Of a stretch of 64,000 nucleotides of DNA, positions 9,372 to 64,000 are shown piece by piece (within the stretch, counting starts at the first letter, position 1; each line of letters opens with the position of its first letter). The position numbers and the translations under genes are program-made. The DNA is from Owenia fusiformis (Eukaryota; Annelida; Polychaeta; Sabellida; Oweniidae): positions 31,378,501 to 31,442,500 of the forward strand of contig CAIIXF020000012.1 in NCBI GenBank assembly GCA_903813345.2. The letters run 5' to 3'. Under the pieces are notes generated by a model. The model ran no database searches. It worked only from the letters and a program-made list of their open reading frames with translations, and was not told the origin of the DNA.

Positions 9372-11397
9372 TTAAAGTTTAAGAATCCGAGATATTAAGC
9401 CAGGATTCCCACCTTCGACAACTTCAATTGTCAATTCACTGCATTCCCGATAACCGTTCAAGTAATTGCTAGCACAGCATCTGTAAATCCCTGCCTGGTT
9501 GAATTGGATGTTGTTGATTTGTTTTGTGTCTCCGAATTCCTCAGTACCAAAGTTGGGATCATATGTTGTTCTAAACTGCCACGTGTACGTTGGGGTAGGG
9601 TTTGCTAATGATTCCCCCTTTAGTTGTACATTTGTTCCTACTGTGCGTTGTAATATAGCTTGGTCTGGAATATTGTTGCCATCGACAAAGAGGGTGGGCT
9701 TACGTGCCGGATCTAAAACGTCCATGGTATTATTAACGATTATCAAAGAAATAATTTGCAATATTTACGAGGTGTATTGACTATTGCTATGGATACCTTT
9801 AAATGCATAGTTAAGTTTAATGTTCGGAAGCACCATGTGTTCCGCTGTATCAAAAATGATTCAGAATAAGGATTTAAAGGCACAATCAGATCAACGGCGG
9901 GGGTGACAAATTTACAAGCAACATGTACAATTGACCTACCAATCTATTCCTTACAATCTCAAATACAATATCTCCCAAAATATTCATGATTTGCTATACA
10001 TTGGTGAAGTTATAATGGATTCAAAGTGCAAAAATGGTTGAAAAATGTTTAATATTTATTTTAAATAATAAGAATGGTAACCATTCTTATAGAAAAATAA
10101 TACATTATTTTAAAAATCTTTAGTTTTCCTGAAATAAAGTGTGCACTTTTGGGAGTTTTAGAAAATAGACACGAAAAGGAATGACTATGAAAGCCAGAAA
10201 TATTCTAAAACTGAGTCAATTTTTGTAAGGTTGCTCGCTAGATCTGGTCCTCTTTAAGTCTTGGACAATGATTATATGCTAAGGGTGTCTTCCACACAAT
10301 ATTGCATTACACAACACAACACAACATCACATAACATATTATAACATAACATAACGTAAAGTAACGTTACGTTACGTAACGTAACGTAACATAGCATAGC
10401 ACCTGAGACTGATAGCACTAAATAACAACAACATAGCATATTCGAATACTTACATTGTATATTAAGCCTAGTGGAACAGTGTTGTTGGATATTTAGTACG
10501 CTGAGAGAACAATATAATTCCTTCTGGTTATCAACACTAGATGCGCTTTTAGTGTACCTTGACTTCAAAACTCCTGGTGTAGTCTCATCTGGTGTTGCAG
10601 TTTGCTCGATACCATTAAGTGTCCAAGTGATAGTGGGTTTCTCGCTATCATCTCTCTCCCCTGCATATGTGACAGACCACTCAAATGTGATGGTATTATT
10701 CTGAATAAATGAAGTAGTCCCTGACATTGGACACAATGCAGGTTCTGGAAATATAATGAAAATCAAACAGACCACGCATGTGATGGTATTGTTCTCATTT
10801 GATGCTGAAGTCCCTGACATAGGACATCTCGCGGGTTCTGGAAATATAATTTCAATCAATAAAGACCATTTAAATGTGACGGTATCGCTCTCATTTAATG
10901 TTATAGTCCCTGACATAGGGCATGGACATATAATTTATATCAATGAAGACCATTCAAATGTTAAAGTATCGTTCTCTTTGATGTTTTAGTCCCTGACATA
11001 GTTCATGTTCAAAGTTACACTTGAAATAATGGTCAATGCATTATAAAGTGGAAAATAAACAACAACTTACTAAGAACTACCAAATGTGGCTCCAGGTCAC
11101 CAATCGGTGTTCCAGTTAGTACATCATTACAAGTGTACTTTCCTGCATCATCCAAGACAACATTTTGTAGGCCAAGGTTGTAGGATTTCTCCGTGCTTAT
11201 AGAATATTTGTGGTGTGGATTAGTTGTAGTTACTCTATCATTGATTGATATTTGTTCACCAGAATTACCTATCCACTGTACAAGATGATCGGCAGATGAT
11301 ATAGTGTCAATATGACAAGTCAACTCAGCATTCTGCCCAGACAACACAGCCCTGTCTTGTGGACCTTCTATAAGGACTATATCACTTTGTCCCGATG
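9372..11397 (-). CDS. Orphan Ig-A/Ig-B/Ig-C exon set of the receptor-kinase family
   Basis: Three minus-strand exons match the ectodomain of the two receptor kinases to the right: Ig-A 11397-11071, Ig-B 10744-10454, Ig-C 9712-9413. Each is flanked by phase-1 junctions. Ig-A keeps the canonical Cys pair (ELTCHID...GKYTCND). The Ig-C donor used by the paralogues is altered; an alternative GAAG|GTGGGA keeps phase, or reading on gives a stop at 9372. No transmembrane or kinase exon follows before the convergent TRAF gene, and no signal-peptide or lectin exon was seen up to 16.6 kb. It may be a 3'-truncated duplicate, or a secreted Ig product if joined to upstream exons. Expression is unknown. Confidence 0.6.
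9413..9712 (-). CDS. Ig-C exon of the orphan set
   Basis: The acceptor GTTTTAG precedes the phase-1 start ATCCGGCACG. It encodes [20 protein letters not shown] and the C-terminal [11 protein letters not shown]...ECSEL. The B-strand cysteine is replaced (LKGES where LxCxS is usual). Confidence 0.75.
9876..10255 (+). repeat. Dispersed 380-bp repeat (copy b)
   Basis: Second copy of the repeat at 4556-4935, here in the Ig-B/Ig-C intron of the orphan set. Confidence 0.7.
10303..10405. repeat. AACAT/ACGTA pentanucleotide microsatellite
   Basis: Runs of ACAAC, ATAAC and ACGTA units beside the Ig-B donor. Related AACAT runs lie in the Ig-B/Ig-C introns of the paralogues (24425-24475, 29165-29205, 57790-57830, 60090-60130), so the tract predates the duplications. 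Confidence 0.7.
10454..10744 (-). CDS. Ig-B exon of the orphan set
   Basis: 97 codons between phase-1 junctions (TTTCCAG acceptor, CAAT|GTAAGT donor). Contains [32 protein letters not shown] and [14 protein letters not shown]. The canonical B-strand Cys is absent. Confidence 0.75.
10745..10995 (-). repeat. Tandem partial copies of the Ig-B exon start
   Basis: Upstream (minus sense) of the Ig-B exon are about three diverged units. Each repeats the acceptor, the CPMSGT start and about 50 bp of exon before running back into intron sequence. They lack the rest of the exon and any donor. Confidence 0.7.
11071..11397 (-). CDS. Ig-A exon of the orphan set
   Basis: 109 codons from acceptor TTTGTAG to donor CTTA|GTAAGT. 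Encodes SDIVLIEGPQDRAVLSGQNA, then a canonical Ig with Cys in ELTCH and KYTCN and the Trp in VQWIG. Confidence 0.78.
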
Positions 11398-11890
11398 CTA
11401 CAAATATATATTACAGATTGAATTAGGTGGAATAGTGTTAATATGACAAGTCAACTCAGCATTCTGACAAGACAATACGGCCCTGTCTTGTGGAGCTTCT
11501 ATGAGGATTATATCACCTTGACCCGATGCTGCAAGATATATTAACAGATTGAATAAGATGAAATAGTGTCAATATGACAAATCAATTCAGCATTTTGCCC
11601 GGACAATTCGGCCCTGTTCGGCGGAGCTTATATGAGGACCATATCACCTTGATCCGATGCTGCCGAATATTTTTACAGATTGAATAAAATGATATAGTGT
11701 CAATATGACAAATCAACTCAGCATTCTGCCAAGACAGCCCGGCCCTGCCCCGTTGAGCTTCTATGAGGACTATTTCACTTTGACCCGATGCTGCATGCAA
11801 GATATATTTATAGATTGAATAAGATGATATAGTGTCAATATGACAAGTCAACTCAGCACTCTGCCCCCAGACAATACGGCCCTGTCACTC
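11398..11890 (-). repeat. Tandem array of Ig-A exon-start segments
   Basis: About four further units of roughly 131 bp. Each has an acceptor (starts at 11528, 11659, 11790 on the minus strand), about 100 bp of the Ig-A exon up to the first Cys region, then the intron lead-in of the next unit. The outermost is truncated at a G-tract. Several still read openly across the exon piece. Confidence 0.8.
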
Positions 11891-11894
11891 TGGC

Positions 11895-12140
11895 GGATCT
11901 GGGGGGGGGGGGGGGCTGGGGGCAAGGCCCTCCACCCTTGGGTGGGCCCAGAAAAAATAATTTGGCCCAGAAAAAGTTTTGGACCAAAAAAGGCCTTAAG
12001 GCCCCAAAAAGTGTTTTTTATCATTACTGGGCCTTTTAAGGCCTTATTTTTATTTTGAAGAAAATGGGCCTCAAAATTTTTTCGCGGAAGTTTTTTTCTC
12101 TGACCTGAAATTTGCCCCCCTTGTTGGTTCCCAGATCCTC
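11895..12140. repeat. GGGCCCAGAAAAAAT repeat with poly-G head (copy a)
   Basis: Starts at a G13 run and holds TGGGCCCAGAAAAAATAA and TTTTTTCTCTGACCTGAAAT. The same pieces occur at 55790-56030, and a related stretch at 62395-62550. Confidence 0.6.
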
Positions 12141-13388: not shown

Positions 13389-13539
13389 TTGGGGGGGGGG
13401 GCTTGAACTCATCCCCCTGCCCACACATCAAGAAATTTCCAACACCTGGGGCGACCCTGAAAATTCAGAGGGTGGGTGACGAAAACAAGGCATTAACATG
13501 ACAAAATGTCACCACCTAGTTGCTCACAATATTATTATT

Positions 13540-13990: not shown

Positions 13991-13999
13991 AGTTATTGG

Positions 14000-16616: not shown

Positions 16617-16676
16617 AAAGTTTTTCCTCGAGATTTCTTGGGTTAACATTAACATAAAGAGCCTCATTGAAGTCTT

Positions 16677-17055
16677 TCATTTCCATATAAGGGTTTCTTC
16701 CTGTAAGATGTTCTCCATTTTGGACACGAGATCTGAGAATGTTGGTCGTCTACCCGCATCGTGACACCAGCATTCGGCCATCACATTATATCTGCAAATT
16801 AAAACGAATTTAATGCAAATTATAAAAATAACATCAAAACGATTTGACACCTCTTAATCCGGATTTAGATTCTGCTCGATTTTGTATGTATCGGTTTAAT
16901 TTGCTCACATTTTCCCAGATCTAAGTAAGAATACTAAAAGCTCAAGGAGTTAACTTACATCTCTGATTTAAAATGCTGTTGCCTGTCCATCACCTTCCCA
17001 GCTTTCACAAATTCCATGACTTCTTTGCCATTCATCCCAGTATAAGGCGTCGATC
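16677..17055 (-). CDS. Kinase C-lobe exons 14-15 of gene 1, shifted tail
   Basis: Exon 17055-16959 encodes [20 protein letters not shown]. Exon 16791-16677 encodes [20 protein letters not shown] and ends EETLIWK-stop. Gene 2 reads on through EESPYLEMK to [13 protein letters not shown]. One base fewer in gene 1 near 16695 causes the early TGA at 16679-16677; the tail codons survive out of frame to about 16617. Confidence 0.83.
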
Positions 17056-20000
17056 CTAAACACATTAAAATACCATCCGAGCTTCTTTAATTTTTTTAGG
17101 AACACATGTCCGTTACTTTTTCAATTTTTAAATAATTGAAGATTTCCGAATCTTATGAACATTACAGGGTGTCCCAGAACTCATGAGAATTTTTTGAGGG
17201 AGATATAAGACATGAGTGATTTTTCTTCACATTTGGTACACTTATTAAACACACTTTGGGGAATAACTGACATGAATTTCAGACACATGTCTTTTACATT
17301 TCCGAATTTATTGACATTTGAGTTGTACATCGCCACAAACCCCGGAGTTGTCAGGAAAATAGAACAGTTATTGTCACATTTTGTCATTAATTTTATGCAA
17401 ATTCTCAAGTATAAAACCAAAGTATTTTGTACAAGCTCAGTTGAGCATTTTTCTCATATTGATGATGCACTTTGATAAAACGATATACAAATTTTGATAG
17501 AGACCCAATACATCAACGGATTGCACATTTGGTTTGCTGAAAGATCATAATGACATGTTCCTGAGGGACTGAAAGAAATGTCCCCATTTGCTAGCCAATA
17601 TGATCTTGCATATTGACAATGCACCAGTGAATAAGTCCCTACATGCATGTCAGTAGTGCATCCAATTTACTAAACTATTGAGACTTTACAGTATATAGTA
17701 TCTCCATGTATATGTCAGATATTGCTCTACTAGACTTTTCATTTCTTTTGAGACCTTAAACAAAGATAAGTTGGCCATGTCACTGAATTGGAAGAAGAAT
17801 TGAGTCATGTTGTTTCAGAGAACCCTACAGAAATGGCTATATTGGACAATTTGGGAATGTGTATAAAGAGTAGCTGAAAAGACGACATCAAATGCAGATA
17901 ATATGCTACAATGACTCTGTAGAGATATGTTAGCTGAATGTGTATGATCCTATTAACTAATGTACTGAAACGCCGAAATAATTCAATGAAAGCAATACTA
18001 TTATAGTAGAGAAATTGTGTAAATATTGTCAAAATATGACGTAAATTGTTGTATTTCCCTGACTACTCCGGGGTTTGTGGCGATGTAGAATTCAAATGTC
18101 AATAAATTCGGAAATATAAAAGACATGTGCCTGACATTCATGTCATGTCAGTTATTCCTCAATGTTTGTTTATTAATTGCACTTTATTTGAAGAAAAATC
18201 ATTCATGTCTTATATCTCCCTCAAAAAATTCTCATGAGTTCTGGGACACCCTGTACATTTTTACATTTTATAATTGATGAGATATCGTATTTGTTTTTTT
18301 CCCAGGAGAGAGGGGCATATCATGAGCACATTGGCATGACGAATATTGCACCCACGATTGTTCACTGTAAAATATGGCTATTACTTAATTTCATATTTAG
18401 TCAATTAGTTTACCGAATGTAAGTATTTCCCAGAGGAGTATACCATAGGCCCATACATCATTCTTGGTTGTGTAAATATTGTGGAACAGAGCTTCAGGAG
18501 ACATCCATCTAATGGGAAGACGACCCTACAATATAAAGTTTTATCATATACCGAATATGTAACACTCATCCTGATTGGTCAATATATAGTCACGTGTCAT
18601 CACCCGCCGAAAGTTATATTCCCTCAAATGTGAGAAGCGGGAATATACATTTGAACTATTGCCCGCTGACGTCATAATTGCAACTTCTTTTACCCCAGGA
18701 AACGTCTGCGCATCGTCATTGCGAACACGAAAAACCAAAAAAATGGAGAAAACACACAGACAGAACTCAACTCTGTTCACCATGACAGCCGTGCGAGAAC
18801 GATACAATATTGGCAAGATGGAACGTTCCCTAAGATCAATATGTCTGTGTAATTTCAAATGTTATGTTAATTTATTTCCCGTGTTGTACATGATTGAACT
18901 TTCAAAGTGAGAGTCTCAGAAATTCAGAAATCCCCGACGAAAAAATTCTGTTGAGCATATCATGAAGTCACGGGTTTTAATGCTAACATAAATATTGACC
19001 GGGGGCCTGACTGCCCTGCTGAAATGACAAATCAATATTGGGTATATAATAAAACAAATAGTATATTTTAGAGAATATTCCCTCGGGGAAATAATTTACA
19101 CTATCGCCCTCAATGACAGTCACTATTTGTATAATAATATACTGTATATAAATTGACATTGTTTGTTGCATTTCATGTTTTCTGTTTATGAACTGCGTCT
19201 AAAATGTAACATAACCGACTAAATGAGACCAAATCACCAAATCTCACACACCATAAAAATGAGCTAATGATTGAATCCAAAAATGACTTACTTGTGACGT
19301 TCTGCTATACAAGTCTCTTTCTCCAACATCCCTTGAGAGACCAAAATCGGAGATTTTGCACACCTTATTTGCACTCAATAGGATATTCCTTGCTGCAAGG
19401 TCACGGTGCAGGAACTAGAAATTAGTAAGGGCTTATTTGTGTGTATATAAATAACTAAGCACATGGTCAAAAAGGAAAGGAAAGGACTGTATAGAAATCT
19501 AGTAAGGAAAGCAAACTTTAAGTGTAAACCTGTCATAGGAAATATAGACCCTCTATATCCCAAAACAATGTTCTAACGTGGAAAGAAATAATGACCCTTC
19601 TCCAATTGAAAACCAATATCACAATCCAGGACCAAAACACCAAGGGACACATCAATTATGCTGAAGTCATTACAATACATAAACACACGTAGAAGAAAAA
19701 AATAGAAAATAGGGAGATTAAGCTACACGGTAATAAACAATGTCTACCCCCTTGTCCTCCAATTGAGAGCAAATATCACAATCCAGGACCGGAACACCAA
19801 GGGACACATCATTCATGCTGAAGTCATTACAATACAATACATGTTGAAAAGCATTGGAAGACAATACTCATAACATCAAAAATAGTTGTAGATTCAAGTA
19901 CTCATAAAAGCATTCTGTCTCAAATGATGTGGGATAGACAAAATTAAGTCTCAAAGTCCATAGGCAATGTAAAGGGTCAACATCCATTCATAAAGCCGTC

Positions 20001-43811: not shown

Positions 43812-43817
43812 TTTATT
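43812..43817 (-). terminator. Polyadenylation signal of receptor kinase gene 2
   Basis: AATAAA on the minus strand about 50 bp beyond the stop at 43867. Confidence 0.6.
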
Positions 43818-43866
43818 TGTCGTATAGCTTTTAGTAAACTAAGAAAAATCAAATTTTTGAAAGCTA

Positions 43867-47300: not shown

Positions 47301-48127
47301 GAAGTGTACCAACATCACCTTGATTACAGAAGAGATACCCTGCGTGCAGAGTCTAGTTAAACTACAGTGAAGTCAAACGAATGCAAAGGGTACAGAAGAG
47401 ATCATCTAACAGTCTAAAATTGCTTTTAATTCCCGGGTTTTGATTACATTTTATGTATAGACTTTTTGCCTCTATTCTCATTTTTAAACCTGTTTCTGTT
47501 TGCTTATTTAACAATTGTGATAAATTATTCAGTTAGAGTCGAAACCAAAACAATTTTCTACATTATAGTCCCCTCCTCTTGCACTGACTAAATATTAAAA
47601 TAAGCTAGTCTGATTGCGAATTTACAAATCCTGTAAAAGTAGCTTCAAACCGCCTTTTAATCAGAGAAAACAATAAGTTAATTCATCTGATTGCGAAAAT
47701 ACGAATCAATCTGATTATCTGATCTCCATGCTATTTGATTCGTGCATTATCTACAAGTCAGTCGGGCAAGGGTGAAATTATTTCATTTGAAAACAGAAAT
47801 AAATATCAGAACCCCTCTAGCATAACTATTCGGAAGAAATTCATACAAAAAATAAGGTACACAACTGATGAAGGGTCGCACACAATGCACGCACCCCTCT
47901 CCTCCTCCTCCGTGTTTGCCCACACACGACCATATTTGACAATTTTTCTAAAAGCGTTTTCCCCGGGAATATAGGTGTAGCGGTTGCCAGAAGTCGCACA
48001 GCTTGGGAGTCAGGGTATCCTGATCCATGCCTCAACGCCTGACGGGTCTGATATTTAGAGGGGGCGCAAGAATCATTAGGGGGCGGGGTAAACGTGAAAG
48101 TTGCCAACATATCCATAGGCGTAGCCA

Positions 48128-48158
<31 letters not shown>

Positions 48159-51100: not shown

Positions 51101-54100
51101 CATAGGCCCATACATCATTCTTGGTTGTGTAGATATTGTGGAAAAGAGCTTCAGGAGATATCCATCTAATGGGAAGACGGCCCTACAATATGATGCATAT
51201 TCAAATGTTAGTATTTCCCAATGGAGTATACCATAGGCCCAAACATCATTCTTGGTTATGTAGATATTGTGGAACAGAGCTTCAGGAGACATCCATCTAA
51301 TGGGAAGACGGCCCTACAATATGATGCATATTCAAATGTTAGTATTTCCCAGAGGAGTATACCATAGGCCCATACATCATTCTTGGTTGTGTAGATATTG
51401 TGGAACAGAGCTTCAGGAGACATCCATCCAATAGGAAGACGCGACTACGATAGGAAGTTATTATGTACTCATAAATTGGCATTGTTTGTTCACTCTAGTA
51501 TACCTTGTATTTGAGGTTCATGAGCAACCCATTTGGCTTATTAGTTATGATTGTGTTATTTGTTTTTATTCGTTGTTCCTTATTAATGGTTTATCGGATG
51601 ACTGTTAGATGTTAATTAGGTACTTTCAAAAATATACTTAAAAATACAATTAGACAAACAGAGTAGCTTATACATTTCCAGGGGCTAGGTACGGGAGGTA
51701 CGTATAATCGAGTGTTGCGTTTCATGTTTTCTGTGTATGAAGTGTGTATGAACACATGTAAAATACCAATTAAATGAGACCAAATCACCAAATCTCGAAG
51801 ACACCATAAAAATGAGCTAATGATTGAATCCAAAAAGGTATTACTTGTGACGTTCTGCTGTACAAATCTCTTTCTCCAACATCCCGTGAGAGACCAAAGT
51901 CGGAGATTTTGCACACTTTATTTGCACTCAATAGGATATTCCTGGCTGCAAGGTCACGATGCAGGAACTAGAAATAAATTAAGGTTTATTTGTGTTATTG
52001 AAACTATTTCTCATTAGCAAGTGGAAAATGGACGAACACATGGAAATGTGCTTGACAGTACATATCCTGAATTAAGAAACTAAACATCAGTGCATATTAC
52101 CTCTTACGCTATACATTCTTAAATACCAGAAATCCATCCAAATATAGTCATGATTGTAAATGATCAATATATATACGAATTACTGAAATCACTTGCTTTG
52201 TAAGATGATATTAGATTCATTCCACTTGCTATCTGATATCCAAACTGTATCAATTCTTTACTGGTGTCCAACTTATCAGACCTGATGTATTTTGCTTTGT
52301 TGGCTCGTAGGTAGCTTTGCAGGTCTCCCAAGGGTAGATACTCAACGAGTATCATAGTTTGGTCTGTGAAATAGGAATTTAAGATTAAAGCTAACAATAA
52401 TATATACCTGAAGGGGCAAGAGGGGGGTCAAATTGACTATCAAGCCACTATTGACTATATCTTAAGAATTTTAAAAGATAAAGTAATTAGTGAATAATAA
52501 ATATTTGCAAATCACGTTTTTTTCAAAACCTACTTGATGATACTAACTTTACTGATTCGACTGATTCAAAATTATATTGGACTAATACCAAGAAAAGCAC
52601 GCGCATTTATCCATTTTCTAACTAAATCACTGATTGTAAGATGTTTAGTACATCAGGAAATATGAATGTTAACAAGTAAATCCATTCTGTGAAAAAATCG
52701 CAAGAAAAAGTAGAGCCGCAAACAGGTACGTATTACAGTATTACATGTATCAAGCTCCATACAAATCATCAATTGTTACATATGACGATAAGGTAGAAGA
52801 CCTAAACGTTGTTCTTGGGTCATTTTGACTAAAATACTGCTAAATTACAAAACAATATCCCGAATGATAATAAAACTAATATATTAGTCTAGTAATTCCT
52901 CTAAAGTTTCCCATCAATTATTACACTTAATATGTTTAAGTATCGGAAAAAAGTAATATGTTTTCTCCGCCATGAAATTAAAATAAAAAGTTGATTGGAA
53001 GTACATGTAGATCGAGAGAATCAAGTGAAATCAAGCGAGCAAGAACAAACTTCCAAAATATGACGTCATTTAGAATCCGGGCTTTGTTTTGTCAACCGGG
53101 CTTTGTTCCGATGAGAGAAACTTGAAACATACAAGCAAGAAAAGCAATCTATTACTTTTTTGTTTTCTTGCTAAAAACAAAATCAAATTGAACTTGAGAA
53201 ATTGTTTAGATTATTTAGTTATGCCCTACATTGATTTCAATAGGTATTCGTGAAACCAGCTATCTTTTCAGTTCTATTTGGAAAATTATACATCATTCTT
53301 TCAGGAATTATAACATATTTGGCACTAAAAACATATTTCTGAAAGAAAATTAACAATTCGTCACAAAATGTTAAAAATCAATACTTTTCTGAAGAGATAA
53401 TGGAATAAGATTTACAACAATATCAATACCATTGAAATCAGACAAGTAATAACTTATCCCCGAGGGGGGGGGGACTTAGGGGTACAAAAAAGGTTGCAGG
53501 CATTATATTATGGGAATACGATTATCTAATATCCAATTATTAAATTGGAAGATGACTCGGATAATATGTTGCTTTGTATTTTCAAGTTACTGCATAACTC
53601 GAGACATAAAATTCACTTTCGTTAAAACATTACAAAAATGAAACATAAAACCCTTGTTCAACAATATAATATCGTAATATTGCTCTACGAGATTTCCAAC
53701 TTCGAACAATGTTTCCAAAACCATAGACAAAGACCAGTAATTCATATACAGTACGTATATATCATATCTTAAAATCATACCATTGTATTTCGAGTAACCT
53801 AGAAGTTGTACCACATTGTGATGTATTGGTAACTGCTTCATAAGATCCAATTCACGGAGGAGAGCCTGGTGGTCGTCATCAGATGCATTATCTGCAACAA
53901 GATATGCCAAAGTTAACTATGCCGTATTGCTATGTTTTGGTAACTGCTTCATAAGATCCAATTCACGGAGGAGAGCCTGGTGGTCGTCATCAGATTCATT
54001 ATCTGCAACAAGATATGCCAAAGTTAACTATGCCGTATTGCTATGTTTTGGTAACTGCTTCATAAGATCCAATTCACGGAGGAGAGCCTGGTGGTCGTCA

Positions 54101-57100
54101 TCAGATGCATTATCTGCAACAAGATATGCAAAAGTTAACTATGCCGTATTGCTTTGTTTTGGTAACTGCTTCATAAGATCCAATTCACGGAGGAGAGCCT
54201 GGTGGTCGTCATCAGATGCATTATCTGCAACAAGATATGCCAAAGTTAACTATGCCGTATTGCTATGTTTTGGTAACTGCTTCATAAGATCCAATTCACG
54301 GAGGAGAGCCTGGTGGTCGTCATCCGACGCATTATCTAGAACGGGATGCATCGCCATTAGATCAACATTCAAAATATTTATATACAACGGAACATCGACA
54401 CAGAAACACAATTATAAAGAATATTGAGACATAGAATTTTTAAAACTCACCCTTCAATATCTTTGCAGCGGCCATAAATGGGGATTTTACCTTGTTATTC
54501 ACATTCACTAGTTTTACAACTCCAAATTCACCAGCTCCTAATGTGGCTCCGATGTCAATTGCTTCCATTGGATATTCGTTGTCACATGTGTTTCGCTAAA
54601 TCACACAAATAGTCATATGAAATGTGTTTCCTGGTGATTCAGGACCGCAGAACGATATTTTACAAAGCAATATAAATGTACACTAAAACCAAAATGAACA
54701 TGATCAAGCACAGAGTCAGAGACTATGTCCTGTTTTTGTAGGTTATTAATAAATAAAGCTTCCAATATTAAATTTGACGTTTTTTACTTACAGTGTGCGT
54801 GCTTACATCATCTCTATTATGCTGAGCATGTGTGTTTGGCATGACATCAACTTCTTCATATGGGACACTTTGGCTTTGTTGAGGGACAACGTTTACCTCT
54901 TCCATCGAACCAGTGCTAAACAATGAATTAATAACAATGAAAACAAGGACACCGATTGGTATAACATGTGAAGGAAATATACAAAAATGATTGCGCAACA
55001 GATTTGCAGATATGCACTGACTTGACCTTTACAAGGTCACGATGTCCTCAATAACATTTAGGATGTACCTGAACACTATGCCATAATTAACCCCTTACTA
55101 AATGCAATATTGTATGTCATAATGGTTATGAATGCTCTGGGGGCACTTTTTATATACTTATAGTGACGGATCGTTTGCCTATTGCCTAATTGCTGCAAGG
55201 TTCGTAAAGTAAAATGTCGGAAATATTATCTTCATACTGTTATCCAATGGAAAGTTTCTTGTCATTAGGAAAATTAAAATTAGGAAAATTATAGAAGGAC
55301 AAGTCTCGGTTTTAACAAAGTCTCTTGGGTTAATAATTCTTTTATGAGAAATATAGAAATATCACCCAAATTAAATAATGAATATTCAAAAGAACACATT
55401 TAAGTCTACAAGATCAAATTATCAAAATTGTCTGAAGCAGTCGTAACATGCAGTAGACCGATTCAATAAAAAACAAGTCTCGATTTGGAGAAGGAAGTTC
55501 ATCAGTGTACTGCGCTAATATTTTTCTATGAAAAATATAGAAATATCATCCATATTAAATTATAGATATTCAAATGAAGTTATTTAAATCTACAAAATGT
55601 AAAAATATCAACATTGTCCAAAGCAGGCGAAGCGTGCAGTAGACTAATGAACTTCGTTCTCCAAACCTAGACTTGTCTTTTGACCATTCGGCAAATTAAC
55701 CACTAGGATAAAATAACACTTAGAGAGTATAATATTTGAGAGGGTTAATCTGTATTTCATACATATACTTTCTTCTGTATATGTCAACTGGGGGGGGGGG
55801 GGGGGGCTGAGGTGGGCCCAGAAAAAATAAATTGGGTCCAAAAAGCCCCCAAAATGGGCCTTTTGGTCATTGCTGGGCCTTTTAAGGCCCTATTTTATAT
55901 TATCAGGCCAAATTTGCCTCAAATGTTAAAATTTGGACCCATTTTTGGATTTTAGGGGCCCAAAATTTTTTCCGCGCAAGCTTGGAAGTTTTTTTCTCTG
56001 ACCTGAAATTTGGGTCCCCCTTATTGGTTTCGAAGGATGCTCATGAGTCATCTCTATTCAATTGCATATATTTTTAGCTGTTTACTCTTACCGATTGTCT
56101 GCATCTTTTTTCAATAGAGAATATGCTTTCTTTAATTGTTCGTTTTCATTGTGCAGCTTGAAGACGGAGAATGCAAGAACAGTAATATAACGCCGATGGC
56201 AATCAGTAAACCAAAAATTAGTCCAACGAATGAACTACATGATGCTGTGGCTGGAGTCGTGGTTGTTGCTAGATGAAAATGTTATATGCTCACATACTCA
56301 ATTAAAATCACTTACAGTCACAAATTGATACATGTTCAGTGTGTCCAAAACAGGACTTAATAAAAGTTGATTAATTCCGTCAATCTTGCATATTCTGCCT
56401 TGAACGTTGAGAATTATTTAATTTATTCAGTGTGAATATATTGTGAAAGTTCGACGAGAATCCACTCACTGAGTCAAATATTACAATCCCTTACATATCT
56501 ATGCACAATTGAATCCGATGAACAAAGCTGTTGATGACCCTCCTGCACAGATGAACATAATGGCACGTCTTTGCGAAGTTGTTGCCCTCTTGAGATCAGC
56601 AACTGTGTTGGGGCCTGTCAGTGTACATGTTGTCTTTGGAAAATGTACACAGATTAAAAGTCTGGGGGATTGAAATCTGGCGAATAAGCTACCCGTATGC
56701 GTTCGAAAACTGATTAACTGACAACCAAAGCATTGCCTGAGTCATTCCATCATATCATTAGCTTTTTCGGAGTAGTACCTTATTGAAGGCATTGTCTCTC
56801 TCTCTTTGGTTGTCTCATCTTATTCCTAGTGATCTTCAGGACTTAGCGAGAGCTTCTGAACAATAGAACGGTTCTCGTTCACTATAATAGCACGTCCCCA
56901 ATCATCTTTGAACCAATAGCCATCAATGATTCCATGTTTGTTTTTTGTCAGCCAGGCAGTGCATGCATTCTTCAGAATGCATTGAACGCTGTAACACTTC
57001 ATCAAAAGGGGGGGGGGGTGTAAGCTCCAGTAGGAATTGCTCTTGGAAATAACGTGTTCATTCAAAAATAAATGTGTGAAGGAGGGTCATCAACAACTTC

Positions 57101-59044
57101 GTCGGATTCAATTGTGCACAGAGAGCATGTGGCATGTTTTATAAGGTATTGTAATTTGTAACTCAATATGCAAATTATCATGATTAAACTTTTACAACAA
57201 AATTCACATTAAAGGAACTATACAATGCTGAAATTTCAAGGCAGAATTTGCAAGATCGACTTAGTCAATCGATTTTTCTTCGTTTCTGTTCCTAGACTAC
57301 GTATAACTTTGTATGCTGACAAAATGTATTACAAGGCAAGTATTACACATGAAGTTTTATTGTTGAAAATTGTCAAAAATGTTCTCCATGTTGCTAAACA
57401 GAAATTAAAGTATGAATATTCGTACATACCAACAACTTCGATCGTCACTTCACTGCATTCCTCAAAGTAAAAATTTGAAACACAGCATCTGTATATCCCC
57501 GTTTGGTTGAATTGTATGTCGTTAAGTTCTTTCGTGTCTCTATAATCCACAGTGTCAAAGTCTTGATGGCATTTTGATTTAAACCACCATGTGTACAATG
57601 GCATAGGCTTCGCTAATAATTCTCCTTTAAGTTGTACATTTGTCCCTACTTTACGTTGTAAAATAGCTTGGTCTTGAATAATTTTGCCATTGACAAATAG
57701 GGTCGGCTTAAGTGCTGGATCTAAAACATTCATGATACTATTGACAGATATCAGAATATATACAAAATATACTATAAACAATACAGAACGAAAAGGAGCG
57801 GAGCCGAACAAAACATAACATTAACACGACAGTACATTGTTTGCGAATACCTACTACGTCTAACATCTAGCTTCGTGGAACAATGTTGTTGGATATTCAG
57901 TACACTAAATGAACAATTGAGTTGTTTCTGGTTATGATAACTATATGCTTTTTGGGTAAACGTTGACTTAAAGACCCCTGGTGTCGTCTCGTCTGCTGGT
58001 GAGGTGAGCTTAATACCATCAAGTGTCCAAGTGATGGTGGGTTTCTGGCTATCATCTCTCTCCCCTGCATATGTGACAGACCACTCAAATGTGATAATAT
58101 CATTCTGATAAAATATCGTAGTCCCTGACATAGGACACGATGCAGGATCTGAAAATATAATGACTTAAAATGTCGTAGTTCCTGACATAAGACATGATGC
58201 AGGATCTGAAAATATAATGACTTAAAATGTCGTAGTCCCTGACATAGGGCATAATGTGGGATCTGGAAATATAATCTTTTTTTAATATTTGTGTTTTCTA
58301 AATAAGCATTTACACAATACTTATTGGGCATTGAAACGCGTTGTAGAATGGAATATTTTCTTTATCAACATGTTAGTTAAATTACAGGTCGATCATTCAT
58401 GTATGACGAATTTCATAATATAAAGGAAATGCATAGTTTGCACCCCTAGCCTCGTGTATTTAAGAAATGAAGACCGAGACCGAGTTTTATCCCGTTTTAT
58501 GTAAACAAATCGACTTATACGGAATGATTTAAACAAGACTGTGTGTACACATCTTGATATTTTCATATATCTGGGCTTGGTAGGGATCGTTTCATAAACA
58601 ATGCAAAACACAACACAACATTTGCTCAATGTTGCATGTGAAACTAACGTTCAATGGATTTTATAGATTTACAGCAAAGTGTATAGGACAGCAACTTACC
58701 AAGTACAACCAAATGAGGCTCCAGGCCCCCTATAGATTTTCCCCTTAGTATATCACTACAAGTGTACTTCCCAGCATCATCCAAATCAATGTTCCGTAGA
58801 CCAAGGTTGTATGGTTTCTCTGTACTTATATAGAACTTGTTTGGTATATCAATTGCAATTACCGTATCATTAACTGATAATGGTTTACTTAATCCTGATC
58901 TGATTGAGTTACCTATCCACTGCACAAGATGACGAGCCCCAGATGCAATACGGTCAATGTGACACGTCAACTCAGCGTTCTTCCCAGATAATACGGCCCT
59001 GTCCCGTGGACCTCCTATAAGGACTATATCACTTTGGCCCAAAG
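43867..59044 (-). CDS. Receptor tyrosine kinase gene 2 (Ig-A/B/C, TM, kinase)
   Basis: Paralogue of gene 1. Exons (minus): 59044-58700, 58148-57855, 57720-57430, 56268-56092, 54915-54792, 54595-54451, 53891-53781, 52363-52197, 51967-51845, 51182-51071, 44392-44296, 44044-43867. Catalytic motifs are complete ([31 protein letters not shown]), and the tail has [13 protein letters not shown], a YxNx motif of the Grb2-SH2 type. The stalk and TM exons of gene 1 are fused to one exon here. Its length (177 nt) breaks phase, so the frame stops just inside the membrane. A product read as written would be an Ig protein with a TM helix but no kinase; a sequencing error or unseen splice could restore the kinase. 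Two kinase exons are tandemly multiplied. Signal peptide and lectin exons, if any, lie beyond the window or are lost. Confidence 0.75.
44756..44993. mobile_element. GGCGTAGCCAG-ended MITE
   Basis: GGCGTAGCCAGGGGGATGCG at the left and an inverted CTGGCTACGCC at the right, with a C/G run inside. A one-ended relative is at 48114-48180. Confidence 0.7.
45226..45301. mobile_element. ACCCTGCGT mini-element (copy a)
   Basis: 76 bp from ACCCTGCGTGCAGAGTC to CGAATGCAAAGGGT. Flanks TGTTTTACGAT and AGTTTTATGAA look like a worn 11-bp target duplication. Confidence 0.6.
46140..46291. mobile_element. Palindromic MITE, family 1 (copy c)
   Basis: GTCACATTTGCTCAGAT arms and GAACAAAATACTCAATCGGC core as at 4246 and 5760. 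It lies in the 6.7-kb kinase intron of gene 2. Confidence 0.7.
46340..46421. mobile_element. ACCCTGCGT mini-element (copy b)
   Basis: About 80 bp, GCTGCGTGCAGAGTCTAAT to GAACGAATGCAAAGGGT. More diverged; its 5' end is worn. Confidence 0.55.
46640..46865 (+). repeat. Direct repeat with empty insertion site
   Basis: About 220 bp repeated at 47190-47435 (AGAATCTAACATTTAAT, GAAGTGTACCAACATCACCT). This copy lacks the mini-element and shows the uninterrupted site ACATAAGAGATCATC. Confidence 0.75.
47337..47391. mobile_element. ACCCTGCGT mini-element (55 bp) with 11-bp target duplication
   Basis: ACCCTGCGTGCAGAGTC to ATGCAAAGGGT, flanked by perfect ACAGAAGAGAT repeats (47326-47336, 47392-47402). 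The unoccupied paralogous site at about 46835 has a single copy of the duplicated bases. Confidence 0.8.
48114..48180. repeat. GGCGTAGCCAG element end with long poly-G
   Basis: GGCGTAGCCAGGAG followed by a G run of about 29 and GCGATGGGTGCGATAAC, like the left end at 44756. Run length may be unreliable in the assembly. Confidence 0.55.
48200..51060. other. Gene 2 intron, no recognised feature
   Basis: Long kinase intron with G/C homopolymers at 49495 and 49743 but no supported exon, RNA gene or repeat family. Confidence 0.4.
51071..51182 (-). CDS. Activation-segment exon of gene 2 (complete copy)
   Basis: 112 nt, phase 0 in and phase 1 out, acceptor ATTGTAG, donor ATTCG|GTAAAA. The only one of three copies with a donor. 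Met of WMSPE is Ile here (WISPE). Confidence 0.82.
51183..51455 (-). repeat. Two extra copies of the activation-segment exon
   Basis: 131-bp units repeat the whole exon 13 coding block (51313 and about 51441 down). Both have lost the donor (CATTTGAATATGC instead of CATTCGGTAAAAG), and the outer one has a changed start and WMS context. Open frames run through into the next unit. Confidence 0.85.
51845..52363 (-). CDS. Hinge and catalytic-loop exons of gene 2
   Basis: 52363-52197 ends [13 protein letters not shown] at the same GC donor as gene 1 (GC at 52196-52195). 51967-51845 carries [10 protein letters not shown] and [17 protein letters not shown]. Nearly identical to gene 1, indicating recent duplication or conversion of this part. 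Confidence 0.87.
52400..53770. other. Gene 2 intron, no recognised feature
   Basis: AT-rich, one G run at 53465. Nothing supported. Confidence 0.4.
53781..53891 (-). CDS. Alpha-C kinase exon of gene 2 (complete copy)
   Basis: 111 nt, phase 1 both ends: [20 protein letters not shown] then [18 protein letters not shown]. Acceptor CTTGTTGCAG, donor AATG|GTATGA. Confidence 0.85.
53892..54335 (-). repeat. Four tandem 111-bp units repeating the alpha-C exon start
   Basis: Acceptor positions 54002, 54113, 54224 and 54335 on the minus strand are exactly 111 bp apart. Each unit has about 80 bp of the exon (to LPK) joined to a short piece ending in the next acceptor. None has a donor, and the frame meets a stop (NTA-stop). 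Units are almost identical, so the array is young. The unit length divisible by three makes a spurious open frame on the plus strand. Confidence 0.9.
54451..54915 (-). CDS. Juxtamembrane and glycine-loop exons of gene 2
   Basis: 54915-54792 (phase 2 to 0) keeps [10 protein letters not shown]. 54595-54451 (phase 0 to 1) reads [20 protein letters not shown] and FMAAAKILK. Confidence 0.85.
55290..55682. mobile_element. MITE with AGAAGGAC ends (copy b)
   Basis: Older copy of 32231-32630 with the same two-fold internal duplication (TTCATCAGTGTACTGCGCTA). Confidence 0.7.
55789..56030. repeat. GGGCCCAGAAAAAAT repeat with poly-G head (copy b)
   Basis: G16 run, GTGGGCCCAGAAAAAATAAA, GGCCTTTTAAGGCCC and TTTTTTCTCTGACCTGAAAT as at 11895-12140. 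Confidence 0.6.
56092..56268 (-). CDS. Fused stalk/transmembrane exon of gene 2, out of phase
   Basis: Acceptor CATCTAG then the Thr-rich stalk (TTTTPATAS) runs straight into [19 protein letters not shown]. Two extra bases relative to gene 1 shift the frame inside the helix, leading to a stop after CTMKTNN. The other frame still reads [12 protein letters not shown] to the donor (CG|GTAAGA), so the shift may be young. Confidence 0.75.
56280..57420. other. Gene 2 intron between Ig-C and TM
   Basis: No supported exon. The repeated phrase ACTTCGTCGGATTCAATTGT/ATTGAATCCGATGAACAAAG at about 57100 and 56508, inverted, suggests a further decayed inverted-repeat element of about 0.6 kb. Confidence 0.4.
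57430..57720 (-). CDS. Ig-C exon of gene 2
   Basis: 97 codons, phase 1 both ends; [17 protein letters not shown] again lacks the first Cys, [18 protein letters not shown] keeps the CC plus C pattern. Confidence 0.83.
57855..58148 (-). CDS. Ig-B exon of gene 2
   Basis: 98 codons, phase 1; [45 protein letters not shown]. The intron to Ig-C is only about 130 bp, against 5 kb in gene 1. Confidence 0.83.
58149..58275 (-). repeat. Two short copies of the Ig-B exon start
   Basis: Units of about 57 bp repeat the acceptor and CPMSGTT(T)F start upstream of the complete exon, with no continuation. Confidence 0.75.
58700..59044 (-). CDS. Ig-A exon of gene 2
   Basis: 115 codons, phase 1; [39 protein letters not shown]. 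Intact. Confidence 0.83.
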
Positions 59045-59872
59045 CTACAAGATATATTAATAGAATAAATATTATTATTTATATGTGTTCAGTACACAGG
59101 GTACGATCTGGATTTAAATACATCCCGTACATCGCTCCTGTCATCTAAAATAATATCATGGACTCACACTACTACTAATGCATTACTTCCACCTATAGAC
59201 ATAATACAAAAACCTAGATAAAGATTATTATCTGTGTACGTTTATACATTATTCATTTATCCTACCTACATTGAAGCACATTACAATCATCAAAACAAAG
59301 CAGTTTGTATACTCGTTTTTGTGCATTTTCTTACTGATCAAACTATTTTCCAATTTTCTAGTATTTAGCTTTTCGTGTGGAAATATTGAAACACAAAATC
59401 ATGTGGAAATGTCAAAGCACAATTTGTAAGATTGAAGTTAATCGACTTTTCTTGGGCACAAAATATATTACAAACGTATAACACATAAAGTCTTACAGTG
59501 TAAAAAACTGTCAAAAATGCTCCGCATGTTGCTAAACACAAATTAAGGTATAAATATTCGTACATACCAACAACTTCGATTGTCAATTCACTGCATTGCC
59601 AACCGTTCTCAACGTATTGGTAATTACTATAAGAACAGCATCTGTATATCCCTGCTTGGTTGAATTGTATGTTGTTAAGTTGTATTGTATCAATAGTATC
59701 GAGAATGTCAAAGTTTGGGTTATTTTTTGTCCTAAACCACCATCTGTACCATGGAATAGGCTTCGCTGATGATTTTCCTTTCAGTTGTACATTTGTTCCT
59801 ACTGTGTGGTGTAATATAGCTTAGTTTGGAATAGCGTTGCCATTGACAAAAAGGGTCGGTTTAAGTGCTGGA

Positions 59873-60030
59873 TATAAAACATCAATGGTATCATTGACAA
59901 ATATATCTAAAACATCCATGGTACATGTATCATTGACAATATATCTAAAACATCCATGATATCATTGACAAATATATCTATAACATCCATGGTATCATTG
60001 ACAATATATCTAAAACATCCATGGTATCAT
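59873..60030 (-). repeat. Tandem array of Ig-C acceptor segments
   Basis: Four to five units of about 37 bp, each ACCATGGATGTTTTAGATAT on the minus strand, i.e. the intron end of Ig-C repeated. The unit adjoining the exon has lost the AG while upstream units keep TTTTAG. Confidence 0.75.
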
Positions 60031-60164
60031 TGACAAATATCAGCGAAATAATTTGCAATAACGAAACATTACAAAACAGAATTGAACTAATGAAACGGAA
60101 CGGAACGGAGCAGAACATAACATAAGATAAACATCATAGCACATTTCATAATGCGAATACCTAC

Positions 60165-60458
60165 ATTCTATTATTTTTAGCTTTGTGGAACAATGTTGTT
60201 GGATATTCAGTACACTAAATGAACAATTGAGTTGTTTCTGGTTATCATAACTAGATGCTGTTTTAGTAAACGTTGACTTGAAGACCCCCAGTGTAGTCTC
60301 GTCTGCTATTGCAGTTTGCTCAATACCATTAAGTGTCCAAGTGATGATGGGTTTCTGGCTATCATCTCTCTCCCCTGCATATGTGACAGACCACTCAAAT
60401 GTGATGGTGTCATTCTGAATAAATGTCGTAGTCCCTGACATAGGGCATGATGCGGGAT
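60165..60458 (-). CDS. Ig-B exon of the decayed set (open)
   Basis: 98 codons, phase 1; [20 protein letters not shown] to [15 protein letters not shown], donor GAAT|GTAGGT. Most similar to gene 1 Ig-B. Confidence 0.75.
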
Positions 60459-60599
60459 CTGAAAATATAATCTTTTCAAGATTTGTGTTTCTGAATAAGC
60501 ATTCACACAATACGTATTGGGCATCAAATAGCGTAGTAGAATGGAATGTTTTTTTTATATTCAGGCTAGTTAAATTTAGGTCAATCATTTTTAATTCAT

Positions 60600-62390
60600 G
60601 TTTCGTAATTTAGAAGAAATGGATAGTTTTTACCTCTAGTCTCATATATTAATATCTATGTGATCGAACAGAATTGTGATGTATATCTGTTTATTCATTC
60701 TGATACTCATAGCATCTTTCTGTTTCGCCTGAAACATGCTCTGATATTATGAGCCATATTCTGTGATCTGAGCACATCAGATGGGAAGAGTTATAACTGT
60801 CAATAAGTGTGATAGTTATCATAATCATTTACCTAAATGTCAATACATTACATAATAGGCATTGTATTTAACAGCAGATATTAGCACAGGCACAGGTACA
60901 CAAGTTTAATGACCCAAATACTCCAATATCCAAGATGCGAGTAGAAATATTCTTGATTTATGTCATTAAAATAAGAGTTCAGTTGGTAATTTACATAAAT
61001 ATCTCCCATGATGCATTGCTTTGGAAGGGACAAATTTTTATTGGCCCGCCGAACGAGTCGATTACTATGAACGAAACGTCCGGAGATTGTAAAGTCAAAG
61101 GTCACGATCCGCTAATTTCATTGGTCGATGATTACATCATAGCATATGTATAGCATCGAAATGGCGGACGATTACTCGGACAAAAGTTCAACAAATTCTG
61201 ATAAATCTAAGCTTAGCGTGAATCTTGACAAAATGACAGTTTTTCAGCTTCCGATCTTCCATCAGCCCTCAAAAATACGTACTAGTTATATTATCCAATC
61301 TATTCAATAATCAGAAAGATAATCGGAGATTCAAAGTAACATTATTTTCATTTCTTTCGATCTTCAATGGCGTCTGAGCGATTTCTGGAAATCAGTGACG
61401 TCACTGAAATTGGACGGCATTTTCAACTACCGATTTTTTCGGATTTGGGGATTATAGTTCAACAAGCCTTGTTGTATATCTTCATTACATACATATCTAT
61501 CGTTTGTGCAAATGCAATTATACTATACATAAATGTCTAATAAAGCCATAATGCCTCATTGAAAATCGCACCCTGTGTAATCCAATGGGGAAGAACCCGG
61601 ATGTAGACAAAAATGTACCCTTCATGAGAGATCTCCAAGCGGGAGTTAATTAAACTGAACTAGAACTAGACTTTATCGCGTATTGGAGTATTAGATGAAA
61701 TGTGAGCTGAGATGACAGATCTCAAAAATCCTCAATTTTGGGCTCTCCTGGATCGCCAAATTAAGCTCATTATACCATGGCGTCTCGGGGTTAAGAAGAA
61801 ATGAGATGTCATGGTTTATCATTATGCTGTTTATTTACTCGATGATGTTTATATCACTCCGCATTAGTCGTTTTGATTACATTAACATTGATCGCTGAAT
61901 AGAACATACCATTTTATAAAAAATGGTGACCTAAGTCTTATAGAAATTAATGTTATGTTGCACAGCAATATTGAACGGCGGTTCAAGTACTGTATTGCAC
62001 ACGCTAAATGGAAGAGTGTACTTTCTAAAGACATCAAGTACATCTCTCACTAGAATGGAAAATTCCAACCTCTTTTGTTTGCATTCTCAAAAATGTAGAA
62101 AATGACGAACTTTGCTATGACGTTTTATAACTCCAATTGACGAAACCAATTTCACGTGTCGGCGACGAATATTTTTTATCTAGACGATCCAAGAATGTCA
62201 AGAATGCCAGTGCGATTTTTTACCTCCGATCAAACGATTCCAACTGTTTAAAAACGTTGATGTTAGTCCAGGCGTAAATATGGAATGGATCTTCTCATGA
62301 CTCGACCCATAGACGTGGACTTGCATCGAACTTTCCAAGATATCACGAACCATATAAGCAAGCACAATTTGTGTAAGTCTAAAATGTCCA
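60600..62390. other. Intron stretch without recognised feature
   Basis: Between Ig-A and Ig-B of the decayed set. No supported exon or repeat family. Confidence 0.4.
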
Positions 62391-62394
62391 TCAT

Positions 62395-62550
62395 GTGGGG
62401 GCAAAAATTGGGCCGAAAATGTGAAAATATGGGGCCCATTTTCTCGATAATTTAGCCCAAAATTAAAAATAAGATCTTAAAGTTCCTTTAAAGTTTTTGG
62501 GCCCAATTTTCTTTTCTGGGCCCAAACAAGGGGGCAGGCCCCTGTCCCAT
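62395..62550. repeat. GGGCCC-rich repeat relative
   Basis: GGGGCCCATTTTCTCG and TTTTTGGGCCCAATTTTC resemble the repeats at 11895 and 55789. Confidence 0.4.
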
Positions 62551-63130
62551 TTTTGGGAATGTAAACAAAAGAAGCTGTGCGAGCCATAAGGCATTTTCAT
62601 TCTTCTATCGTCAAAGATGTATTTTTTGGTGTCATAGAGAGTACAATCTATTCCATTGAGCATGTGTTATAACAGTATAGTCCGTGTATACACAGCATAA
62701 TAGTTTCATATATCAAAGATATATATGGGCTTGGTGGGGATCATTTCATAAACAATGCAGAATGCAACAAATACCATAAACGTTTGCTCAATGTTGCATG
62801 TGAATCTAATGTTCAATGGATTTTATTGCAACGTGTATAAAACAGCAACTTACTAAGTACAACCAAATGAGGCTCTAGGTCACCTATAGCTACCCCCTTT
62901 AGTGCATCATTACAAGTGTACTTTCCAGCATCATACAAGTCAGCGTTCCGAAGACCAAGGTTGTATGGTTTCTTTGTACTTATAAAGAACCTGTTTCGCA
63001 CACCATATCGAGTTACCCTGTCATTACGTGATATAGTAGATCCCGATCTTAGCCACTGCACATGGTGATGAGCCCCGGATGCAATAGGGTCAATATGACA
63101 AGTCAACTCAGCATTCTGCCCAGACAACAC

Positions 63131-63603
63131 TATCAGTTATCACACGTTTCAGCATGTGATACAGGAAATATTCCACGAAAGGTAATACTGTATCATCCAC
63201 GAAAGCGAAGCTTGAGTGGTGATACATTGTTACCCGAGTGGAATATTTCCTGTATCACATAAGCTGAAACGTGTGATGACGATTTTATCACATGTCTAGG
63301 AATTTTGAAGCATTTTGATTTGGTCAGTTATGATTGTGTTCAGTACTTCTGGTAACTATTATAATTTTTGATTTCGCTTTGAAACAATATGACGTCATAC
63401 CGTTGTATTCGTACTTGTTTGTGAAATAGTATGACGTCATATTGTTTTCCTTAGCTAGAAGTGATATAATCAGTGACGTCACATCGTTGCTATTGATCAT
63501 CACTGGTTGCCTCTAGTAACGTGTGAGACGGCCGTGTGAGACGGGAAAACTCACACGGTAATCAACCAATCAGATTACTGGAATTTTACAGAGCATGTGA
63601 TAA
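63131..63603. mobile_element. MITE-like insertion inside an Ig-A exon
   Basis: About 473 bp between ...CAGACAACAC and AAGCCCTGTC, which are adjacent in intact Ig-A exons. Internal palindrome arms ATCACACGTTTCAGC and GCTGAAACGTGTGAT (63138-63275); outer ends both begin TATCA when read inward. Non-coding. Confidence 0.75.
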
Positions 63604-63653
63604 AGCCCTGTCTTGTGGACCTTCTATGAGGACTATATCACCTTGACCAGAAG

Positions 63654-63945
63654 CTACAAGATATATTTACAGATTGAATAAGATGAAATAGTGTCAATAT
63701 ATATGACAAGTCAACTCAGCATTCTGCCCACACAACACGGCCCTGCCTTGTGGAGCTTCTATGAGGGCGATATCACCTTGACCAGAAGCTACAAGATATA
63801 TTTACCTATTGAATGAGATGAAATAGTGTTAATATGACAAGTCAACTCAGCATTTTGCCCAGACAACACGGCCCTGTCCCGTTGACCTTCTATGAGAACT
63901 GTATAACCTTGGCCAAATGCTGCAAGATATATTTACAGATTGAAT
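63654..63945 (-). repeat. Tandem Ig-A exon-start segments at the right edge
   Basis: Two or more further units of about 131 bp (acceptors near 63785 and 63925), each holding the first ~100 bp of Ig-A ([20 protein letters not shown]). Same design as the array at 11398-11890. Confidence 0.75.
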
Positions 63946-64000
63946 AAGTAACAGCCCTGGTTGATTCGTTTATTATTTTTGGTCACTTTCAGATGTTCTG

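What the first reader, a model, noticed from the sequence alone, without database searches (positions are those of the whole stretch)
9413..63945. Recurrent tandem amplification of intron-end/exon-start segments in one gene family
At seven places, in five different exon types (Ig-A twice, Ig-B twice, Ig-C, alpha-C kinase exon, activation-segment exon), short segments bearing a 3' splice site and the beginning of an exon are repeated 3-5 times. Unit sizes differ (about 37, 57, 95, 111, 131, 131 bp), so these are independent events with a common polarity. The exon start is always included and, apart from the activation-segment copies, the rest of the exon is left out; donors are absent. This may reflect a mechanism tied to splice acceptors, a mode of making alternative or decoy acceptors, or relaxed constraint in an expanding receptor family. 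I know of no described system of this kind.
Basis: partly seen in the sequence, partly recalled or inferred. Interest (0 to 1): 0.8.

Follow-up and report, generated by a model that had tools for sequence, protein, structure and literature searches.

The report
Tandem arrays at exon-intron boundaries
In a family of FGFR-like receptor genes of what is probably a marine worm, pieces of DNA spanning the edge of an exon have been copied head to tail up to about 65 times beside the intact exon; lancelets show the same kind of repeats, called mirages, and here they affect both exon starts and exon ends.

Summary
The seven arrays are real. They lie in FGFR-like receptor tyrosine kinase genes with three Ig exons, on the minus strand. 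They are not seven independent events, and they are not a new kind of system.

The two Ig-A arrays share one unit and one junction. The activation-exon and alpha-C arrays share their junctions with paralogues 4.3 Mb away. There the activation exon reaches 14 and 26 copies, and a hinge-exon start about 65.

The stated polarity is a skew, not a rule. Exon-end arrays with donors exist (catalytic exon, C12:35.746 Mb; alpha-C exon, C12:27.570 Mb). By distinct origin I count 9 acceptor-type to 2 donor-type events (P = 0.065). Exon edges are over-represented: 11 of 25 events, about 3 expected.

Array copies drift neutrally in four arrays tested, while intact exons are constrained (kinase omega 0.07-0.12 in 9 of 10 pairs). 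Best reading: neutral minisatellites seeded across splice junctions, growing by unequal exchange, with splicing kept at the intact copy (inferred).

This matches lancelet "mirages" (PMC3087553, PMC3902484; passages). New here: a protostome host, array size, many exons per gene, sharing between paralogues.

The parts
9417..9713 (-). Ig-C exon of orphan Ig triplet A1
   Evidence: donor differs from that of A2
10455..10745 (-). Ig-B complete exon of A1
10672..10923 (-). Ig-B acceptor-type array, 93-95 bp unit, about 2.6 copies
11072..11398 (-). Ig-A complete exon of A1
11294..11886 (-). Ig-A acceptor-type array, 131 bp unit, 4.5 copies; outermost copy is incomplete
16695..33143 (-). Gene A2: C-lobe to Ig-A exons, each of 11 types once; reference for array-free exon edges
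43948..59030 (-). Gene A3: C-lobe, activation, catalytic, hinge, alpha-C, P-loop, JM, TM, Ig-C, Ig-B, Ig-A exons; TM exon shows a 2-base frame shift against A2
51073..51441 (-). Activation-segment array, 131 bp unit, 3 copies; each unit is the exon without its donor plus about 19 bp of intron end
53821..54337 (-). Alpha-C acceptor-type array, 111 bp unit, 5 acceptors; an in-frame TAG in each of the 4 partial copies
   Evidence: read-through of copy 2
58109..58275 (-). Ig-B acceptor-type array of A3, 57 bp unit, 3 acceptors
59569..63130 (-). Ig triplet A4 (Ig-C, Ig-B, Ig-A), pseudogene-like: in-frame stop in Ig-C, insertion in Ig-A
59875..60040 (-). Ig-C intron-end array, 33/65 bp unit, ends at the acceptor
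63605..63948 (-). Ig-A acceptor-type array, 131 bp unit, same junction as 11294-11886

Best explanation
These are mirage-type minisatellites. A short tandem duplication arose across a splice junction of a receptor kinase gene. The array then grew and shrank by unequal exchange or replication slippage, and was passed on to or exchanged with paralogues. One complete exon remains at the end of the array, after an acceptor array or before a donor array. Splicing most likely uses that complete copy, so the partial copies behave as intron sequence and drift neutrally.

Shown: arrays, unit structure, shared junctions, copy-number differences between paralogues, no coding constraint on recent changes in four arrays, constraint on the complete exons. 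Inferred: unequal exchange as the growth mechanism, and use of the complete copy in splicing. The acceptor excess is suggestive, and its cause is unknown.
For: Arrays confirmed. Both boundary types occur. The activation query matched 86 places in 46 loci: 3, 14 and 26 in three loci, one each in the other 43. In the B1 activation array, copies 2-5 pair with copies 6-9 in the tree, a four-unit block repeated in order, as unequal exchange gives. First copies of A3, B1 and B3 group with the single copy of B2, and the inner copies with A2; support is low (0.41, 0.75 and 0.86). Singleton changes in four arrays fall on codon positions 1/2/3 as 21, 22, 28 (chi-square P = 0.55), plus 25 in the intron parts. 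Kinase-exon omega is 0.07-0.12 in 9 of 10 gene pairs and 0.26 in the tenth. The 11 exons, as delimited by tblastn, of each of A2, B1, B2 and B3 have no stop; B1-B3 carry the largest arrays. Most of their exon ends show AG and GT or GC. The lancelet cases have the same anatomy, and RT-PCR there suggested normal splicing (PMC3087553, passages; PMC3902484, passage).
Against: No RNA data, so use of the complete copy is not shown. No reads or second haplotype, so copy numbers rest on one assembly. Raw substitution counts in the activation and hinge arrays lean to third codon positions; variants shared by several copies carry much of this, and singletons do not show it. Seven of 11 unit lengths are multiples of three (binomial P = 0.050, taking 93 for Ig-B), which would fit coding units; but reading through a unit meets a stop in all six units tested. 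Exon edges are over-represented, which random seeding does not explain. Many upstream decoy acceptors keep AG: 14 of 14 in B1, 24 of 26 in B3, 3 of 3 in A3 (these counts include the last, complete copy), 35 of 58 scored hinge sites, so some could be used. Not every exon end of the array-bearing genes is canonical: the B2 Ig-C end lacks GT at the usual place, and the C-lobe ends were not resolved. A3, the window's own array gene, has a frame shift in its TM exon.
Confidence: 0.8

Rival explanations
1. A mechanism tied to splice acceptors (or to splicing itself) makes these arrays, so that acceptors are specific hot spots.
For: 9 acceptor-type to 2 donor-type distinct events (P = 0.065); 11 of 25 events on exon edges against about 3 expected; 17 acceptor and 2 donor arrays among 31 found by self-BLAST.
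Against: Donor-type arrays exist; 13 of 15 scored catalytic donors, the authentic one included, keep GT. Twelve of the 31 self-BLAST arrays touch no complete exon edge, although one of these (B2 35750781) is itself a piece of catalytic-exon end. The skew by distinct event is not significant and drops to 8:2 (P = 0.11) without the borderline Ig-C array. Lancelet mirages occur at both boundaries (PMC3087553, passage).
Confidence: 0.12
2. The arrays have a regulatory or coding role: decoy acceptors that send transcripts to decay, or alternative exon starts.
For: Many partial copies keep AG; read-through of each of six units tested meets a stop, as a poison exon would; 7 of 11 unit lengths are multiples of three; arrays persist in constrained genes.
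Against: Singletons in copies are spread evenly over codon positions. 21 of 58 scored hinge acceptors have lost AG. Relatives A2, E32, F33 and G34 show one copy of each exon matched. The 131-, 169- and 82-bp units do not keep the frame.
Confidence: 0.06
3. The arrays are assembly artefacts.
For: Only one assembly is available; one lancelet mirage appeared wrongly assembled in a draft (PMC3087553, supplement legend passage).
Against: Copies carry copy-specific changes, and different loci carry the same junctions with different copy numbers.
Confidence: 0.03

Closest known systems
Lancelet (amphioxus) mirage minisatellites: globin BflGb6 and BflGb9, Adh3, troponin C, PGBD5 (PMC3087553, PMC3902484; passages read)
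   Same: Tandem repeats spanning intron-exon boundaries; units of about 10-160 bp; both acceptor and donor boundaries; copy-number variation; intact gene beside the array; AG/GT kept in many repeats
   Different: Host here is a protostome by its Lox5-type Hox gene (motif recalled), not a lancelet; an array reaches about 65 units; several exons of one gene are affected; arrays are shared between paralogues Mb apart; no RNA or haplotype data here
Internal tandem repeats in human genes of segmental duplications (PMC2812944; outline and section headings only)
   Same: Minisatellite growth alters the structure of recently duplicated paralogues
   Different: By its section headings, half of the variable repeats modify protein sequence; here the repeats sit at splice boundaries beside a complete exon
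Intron gain by tandem duplication of proto-splice sites (Rogers model, as cited in PMC3087553, passage)
   Same: Tandem duplication across AG/GT-bearing sequence
   Different: No new intron was shown here; partial copies most likely remain within the old intron

Membership tests
mirage minisatellite | tandem repeats that span an intron-exon boundary | tested here: met
mirage minisatellite | minisatellite-size units (10-160 bp in the lancelet cases) | tested here: met
   33-169 bp
mirage minisatellite | both exon starts and exon ends can be affected | tested here: met
   acceptor and donor arrays
mirage minisatellite | copy number is unstable between alleles or in the soma | not testable with these tools
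   only variation between paralogues was seen: 3, 14 and 26 activation copies
mirage minisatellite | inner repeats homogenise while the edge repeats diverge | tested here: inconclusive
   first copies group apart from inner copies, but with low support
mirage minisatellite | regular splicing is not disturbed | not testable with these tools
   indirect only: constrained exons, mostly canonical splice sites
FGFR-like receptor tyrosine kinase | tyrosine kinase domain closest to FGFR/RET type | tested here: met
   Pfam PF07714 3.4e-67; of the 60 PDB rows shown (825 matched) 59 are FGFR1-3 or RET, while the best-scoring row is an EGFR entry. No tree was built.
FGFR-like receptor tyrosine kinase | extracellular Ig domains | tested here: met
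   Pfam Ig_3, I-set, Ig_2, V-set over their cut-offs
FGFR-like receptor tyrosine kinase | transmembrane segment | not tested
   a hydrophobic stretch in the exon that I call TM was recognised by eye only

The most novel reading that the evidence does not exclude
Splice junctions, above all acceptors, are true hot spots of tandem amplification in this genome, perhaps through transcription- or splicing-coupled DNA damage. The arrays repeatedly replace the working acceptor and the adjoining intron of an exon by growth and contraction, so that the same exon uses different, unrelated acceptors in paralogues (activation exon: B2 keeps the first-type acceptor; A3, B1 and B3 use the junction-made one, and A2 resembles it).
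Probability: 0.15. Interest if true: 0.7.

Novelty: new member of a known kind. Interest (0 to 1): 0.45.

Why it matters
In my searches mirages came up only for lancelets. Finding them in a protostome, with dozens of copies in constrained kinase genes, suggests a wider mutational process that renews splice sites. It also gives natural constructs for the question how the spliceosome picks one of many near-identical acceptors or donors. It cautions gene finders: the kinase query matched dozens of array copies of one exon.

Tried and rejected
Coding role of the copies: raw codon-position counts and the seven of 11 unit lengths that are multiples of three seemed to favour it; the singleton test and the stop met in each of six units read through did not.

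Strict acceptor polarity: rejected by the donor arrays in paralogues.

Independent origin of all seven arrays: rejected for Ig-A, activation and alpha-C.

First enrichment count: it used 22 events and left out three arrays at the margins of the gene bodies (C12:35728966, 35729150, 35757809), and two bodies ran slightly past the fetched DNA. One search mends this; the odds given above did not need changing.

The remaining controls are weak. 43 of 46 activation-exon loci have one match. For cytochrome P450 I saw, by eye, no closely spaced matches to the same profile range in the 106 matches (92 of 719 candidates scored); short partial copies would fall below its threshold.

Literature search on an Owenia receptor expansion led nowhere. 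The paper that named mirages (Canestro et al. 2002) is not held; it is cited second-hand. A Python call stopped with an error after its first row, so only locus L036 was translated.

Ectopic exchange between the two clusters is likely but unproved: the activation junction is identical over 21 bases in copies of A3, B1 and B3 (some B3 copies differ), although kinase dS between A3 and the B genes is 0.37-0.38.
Full report
THE OBSERVATION. Tandem Repeats Finder reports all seven arrays. Reading the minus strand and searching with paralogous exon proteins places each on an exon of an Ig-type receptor tyrosine kinase. The window holds an orphan Ig triplet A1 (9417-11398), a gene A2 (16695-33143) with each of 11 exon types once, a gene A3 (43948-59030), and a further Ig triplet A4 (59569-63130) upstream of A3. 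A2 shows the array-free layout. The joined A2 protein matches Pfam tyrosine kinase and Ig domains. Of the 60 PDB rows shown (825 matched), 59 are FGFR1-3 or RET, although the best row is an EGFR entry.

CORRECTIONS TO THE FINDING. The Ig-A arrays at 11294-11886 and 63605-63948 have the same 131-bp unit and the same junction, most simply one origin. The Ig-C array is almost purely intron end and its last copy has lost the AG. The activation units hold the exon up to its last base; only the donor is missing. A4 has an in-frame stop in Ig-C and an insertion of about 470 bp containing an inverted repeat in Ig-A. A1 has no kinase exon in the 59 kb downstream of it that I held. A3 carries a 2-base frame shift in its TM exon against A2. 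So several of the window's arrays sit in damaged copies; B1-B3 below show no stop in their exons.

PARALOGUES. I fetched 80 kb flanking the window, 100 kb at C12:35.70-35.80 Mb, 20 kb at C12:27.01 Mb and five smaller family loci. The 35.7 Mb cluster holds three genes, B1, B2 and B3. Activation-exon arrays there have 14 (B1) and 26 (B3) copies with the junction seen in the window. B1 and B3 share the alpha-C junction of A3. B1, B2 and B3 have P-loop acceptor arrays, B1 and B3 have TM acceptor arrays, and B1 and B3 have Ig-B acceptor duplications. B2 has a 96-bp hinge-exon acceptor array of about 65.8 units.

POLARITY. B2 also has a catalytic-exon END array (C12:35745892-35747251, 96 and 71 bp), and a relative at C12:27569895-27570141 has an alpha-C exon END array, 82 bp x 3. 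Of 15 scored catalytic donors, the authentic one included, 13 keep GT. Counting origins, I get 9 acceptor-type events (Ig-A 131, Ig-B 93-95, Ig-B 57, Ig-C 33, activation 131, alpha-C 111, TM 169, P-loop 123, hinge 96) and 2 donor-type events; two-sided P = 0.065, or 8:2 and P = 0.11 without the borderline Ig-C array. The grouping into origins was made by eye from units and junctions.

ENRICHMENT. In 12 family gene bodies (105 kb with arrays collapsed, 92 exons) TRF arrays of period 25 or more make 11 origins on exon edges and 14 arrays elsewhere. One search placed 27 units at random, because two window arrays (59875, 63605) entered on both sides; this is conservative. It expects 3.4 on edges; P = 1.3e-4 for 11 and 7.6e-4 for 10. 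My first count had 22 events, 2.9 expected and P about 1.5e-5. Eleven of the 14 other arrays lie in one gene, B2. A second method, self-BLAST, finds 31 arrays: 17 on acceptors, 2 on donors, 12 on no complete exon edge; it missed the window's Ig-C and A4 Ig-A arrays. Arrays away from the receptor exons are common in the flanks too: 13 in the 80 kb beside the window (other genes' exons there were not mapped). Selection against arrays inside exons can account for what is missing there, but not easily for the excess over introns.

EVOLUTION OF THE COPIES. Singletons in four large arrays fall 21, 22 and 28 on codon positions 1, 2 and 3, and 25 in the intron parts: no sign of coding selection. Raw counts lean to third positions, and shared variants, 19, 13 and 26, lean the same way (P = 0.11). 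Seven of 11 unit lengths are multiples of three (P = 0.050), but reading on from the exon meets a stop in each of six units tested: alpha-C, hinge, P-loop, activation, catalytic, TM. Acceptor AG is kept in 14 of 14 B1 activation copies, 24 of 26 in B3, 3 of 3 in A3 (complete copies included), and 35 of 58 scored hinge sites; 21 of those 58 have lost it and 2 were unclear. The complete kinase exons have omega 0.07-0.12 in 9 of 10 gene pairs and 0.26 for B1-B3; Ig exons 0.27-0.51. The 11 exons of each of A2, B1, B2 and B3, as delimited by tblastn, have no stop. Most exon ends show AG and GT or GC; the B2 Ig-C end lacks GT at the usual place and C-lobe ends were not resolved. A small tree puts the first activation copies of A3, B1 and B3 with the single copy of B2, and the inner copies with A2, but support is 0.41, 0.75 and 0.86. 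If right, contraction left different acceptors in A2 and B2. The inner junction is identical over 21 bases in copies of A3, B1 and B3, although A3 and the B genes differ at kinase dS of 0.37-0.38; this hints at later exchange between the clusters.

SPECIES. The genome has 498 Mb; nearly all family, Hox and P450 matches fall on contigs C1 to C12, and the five of these whose length was shown have 34.9-62.2 Mb. A Hox gene at C1:18.257 Mb has KLTGP after the homeodomain, which I recall as a Lox5 mark of protostomes. Owenia fusiformis has 12 chromosomes (PMC9539403, passage). Owenia is a guess; a lancelet is unlikely.

WHAT IS KNOWN. [quoted passage not shown] A passage of PMC3902484 adds PGBD5 and troponin C. 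My searches listed no such report outside lancelets that I recognised from titles and abstract starts; the library lacks most subscription journals. The present case meets the structural features of mirages. Allelic instability and splicing could not be tested.

VERDICT. Real, striking in scale, but of a known kind. The claim of a polar, acceptor-bound, undescribed system is not upheld; an acceptor skew and an exon-edge excess remain to be explained.

Noticed in passing
C12:35739100-35745460 (loci L022-L023): 96-bp array of about 65.8 units, most with a hinge-exon start, directly before the intact hinge exon of gene B2
   Followed up: yes
window 20819-20986 and 52197-52364, and loci L021, L023, L026, L032: The hinge exon ends in a GC donor (AAA|GCAAGT) in A2, A3, B1, B2, B3 and the relative at C12:25.12 Mb; the relative at C12:27.57 Mb has GT
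   Followed up: partly
window 63131-63604: Insertion of about 470 bp in the Ig-A exon of A4 containing an inverted repeat; no other full copy in the fetched family regions
   Followed up: partly
window 34251-35850, minus strand: Open frames that look like a non-LTR reverse transcriptase remnant (by eye)
   Followed up: no
window 39466-39963, minus strand: 166-residue open frame with a cysteine-rich, lectin-like look (by eye)
   Followed up: no
window 56091-56240: TM exon of gene A3 has a 2-base frame shift against A2; A3 may be a young pseudogene or use another acceptor
   Followed up: partly
window 18500-18560, minus strand: Just before the A2 activation acceptor lies TTACATATTCGGTA, close to that exon's own end and donor (TTACATTCGGTA); it may be a scar of a lost array copy or the microhomology that started the array
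   Followed up: partly
C12:35782259-35796494 (loci L027-L028): Three 157-bp tandem arrays outside the receptor exons mapped
   Followed up: no
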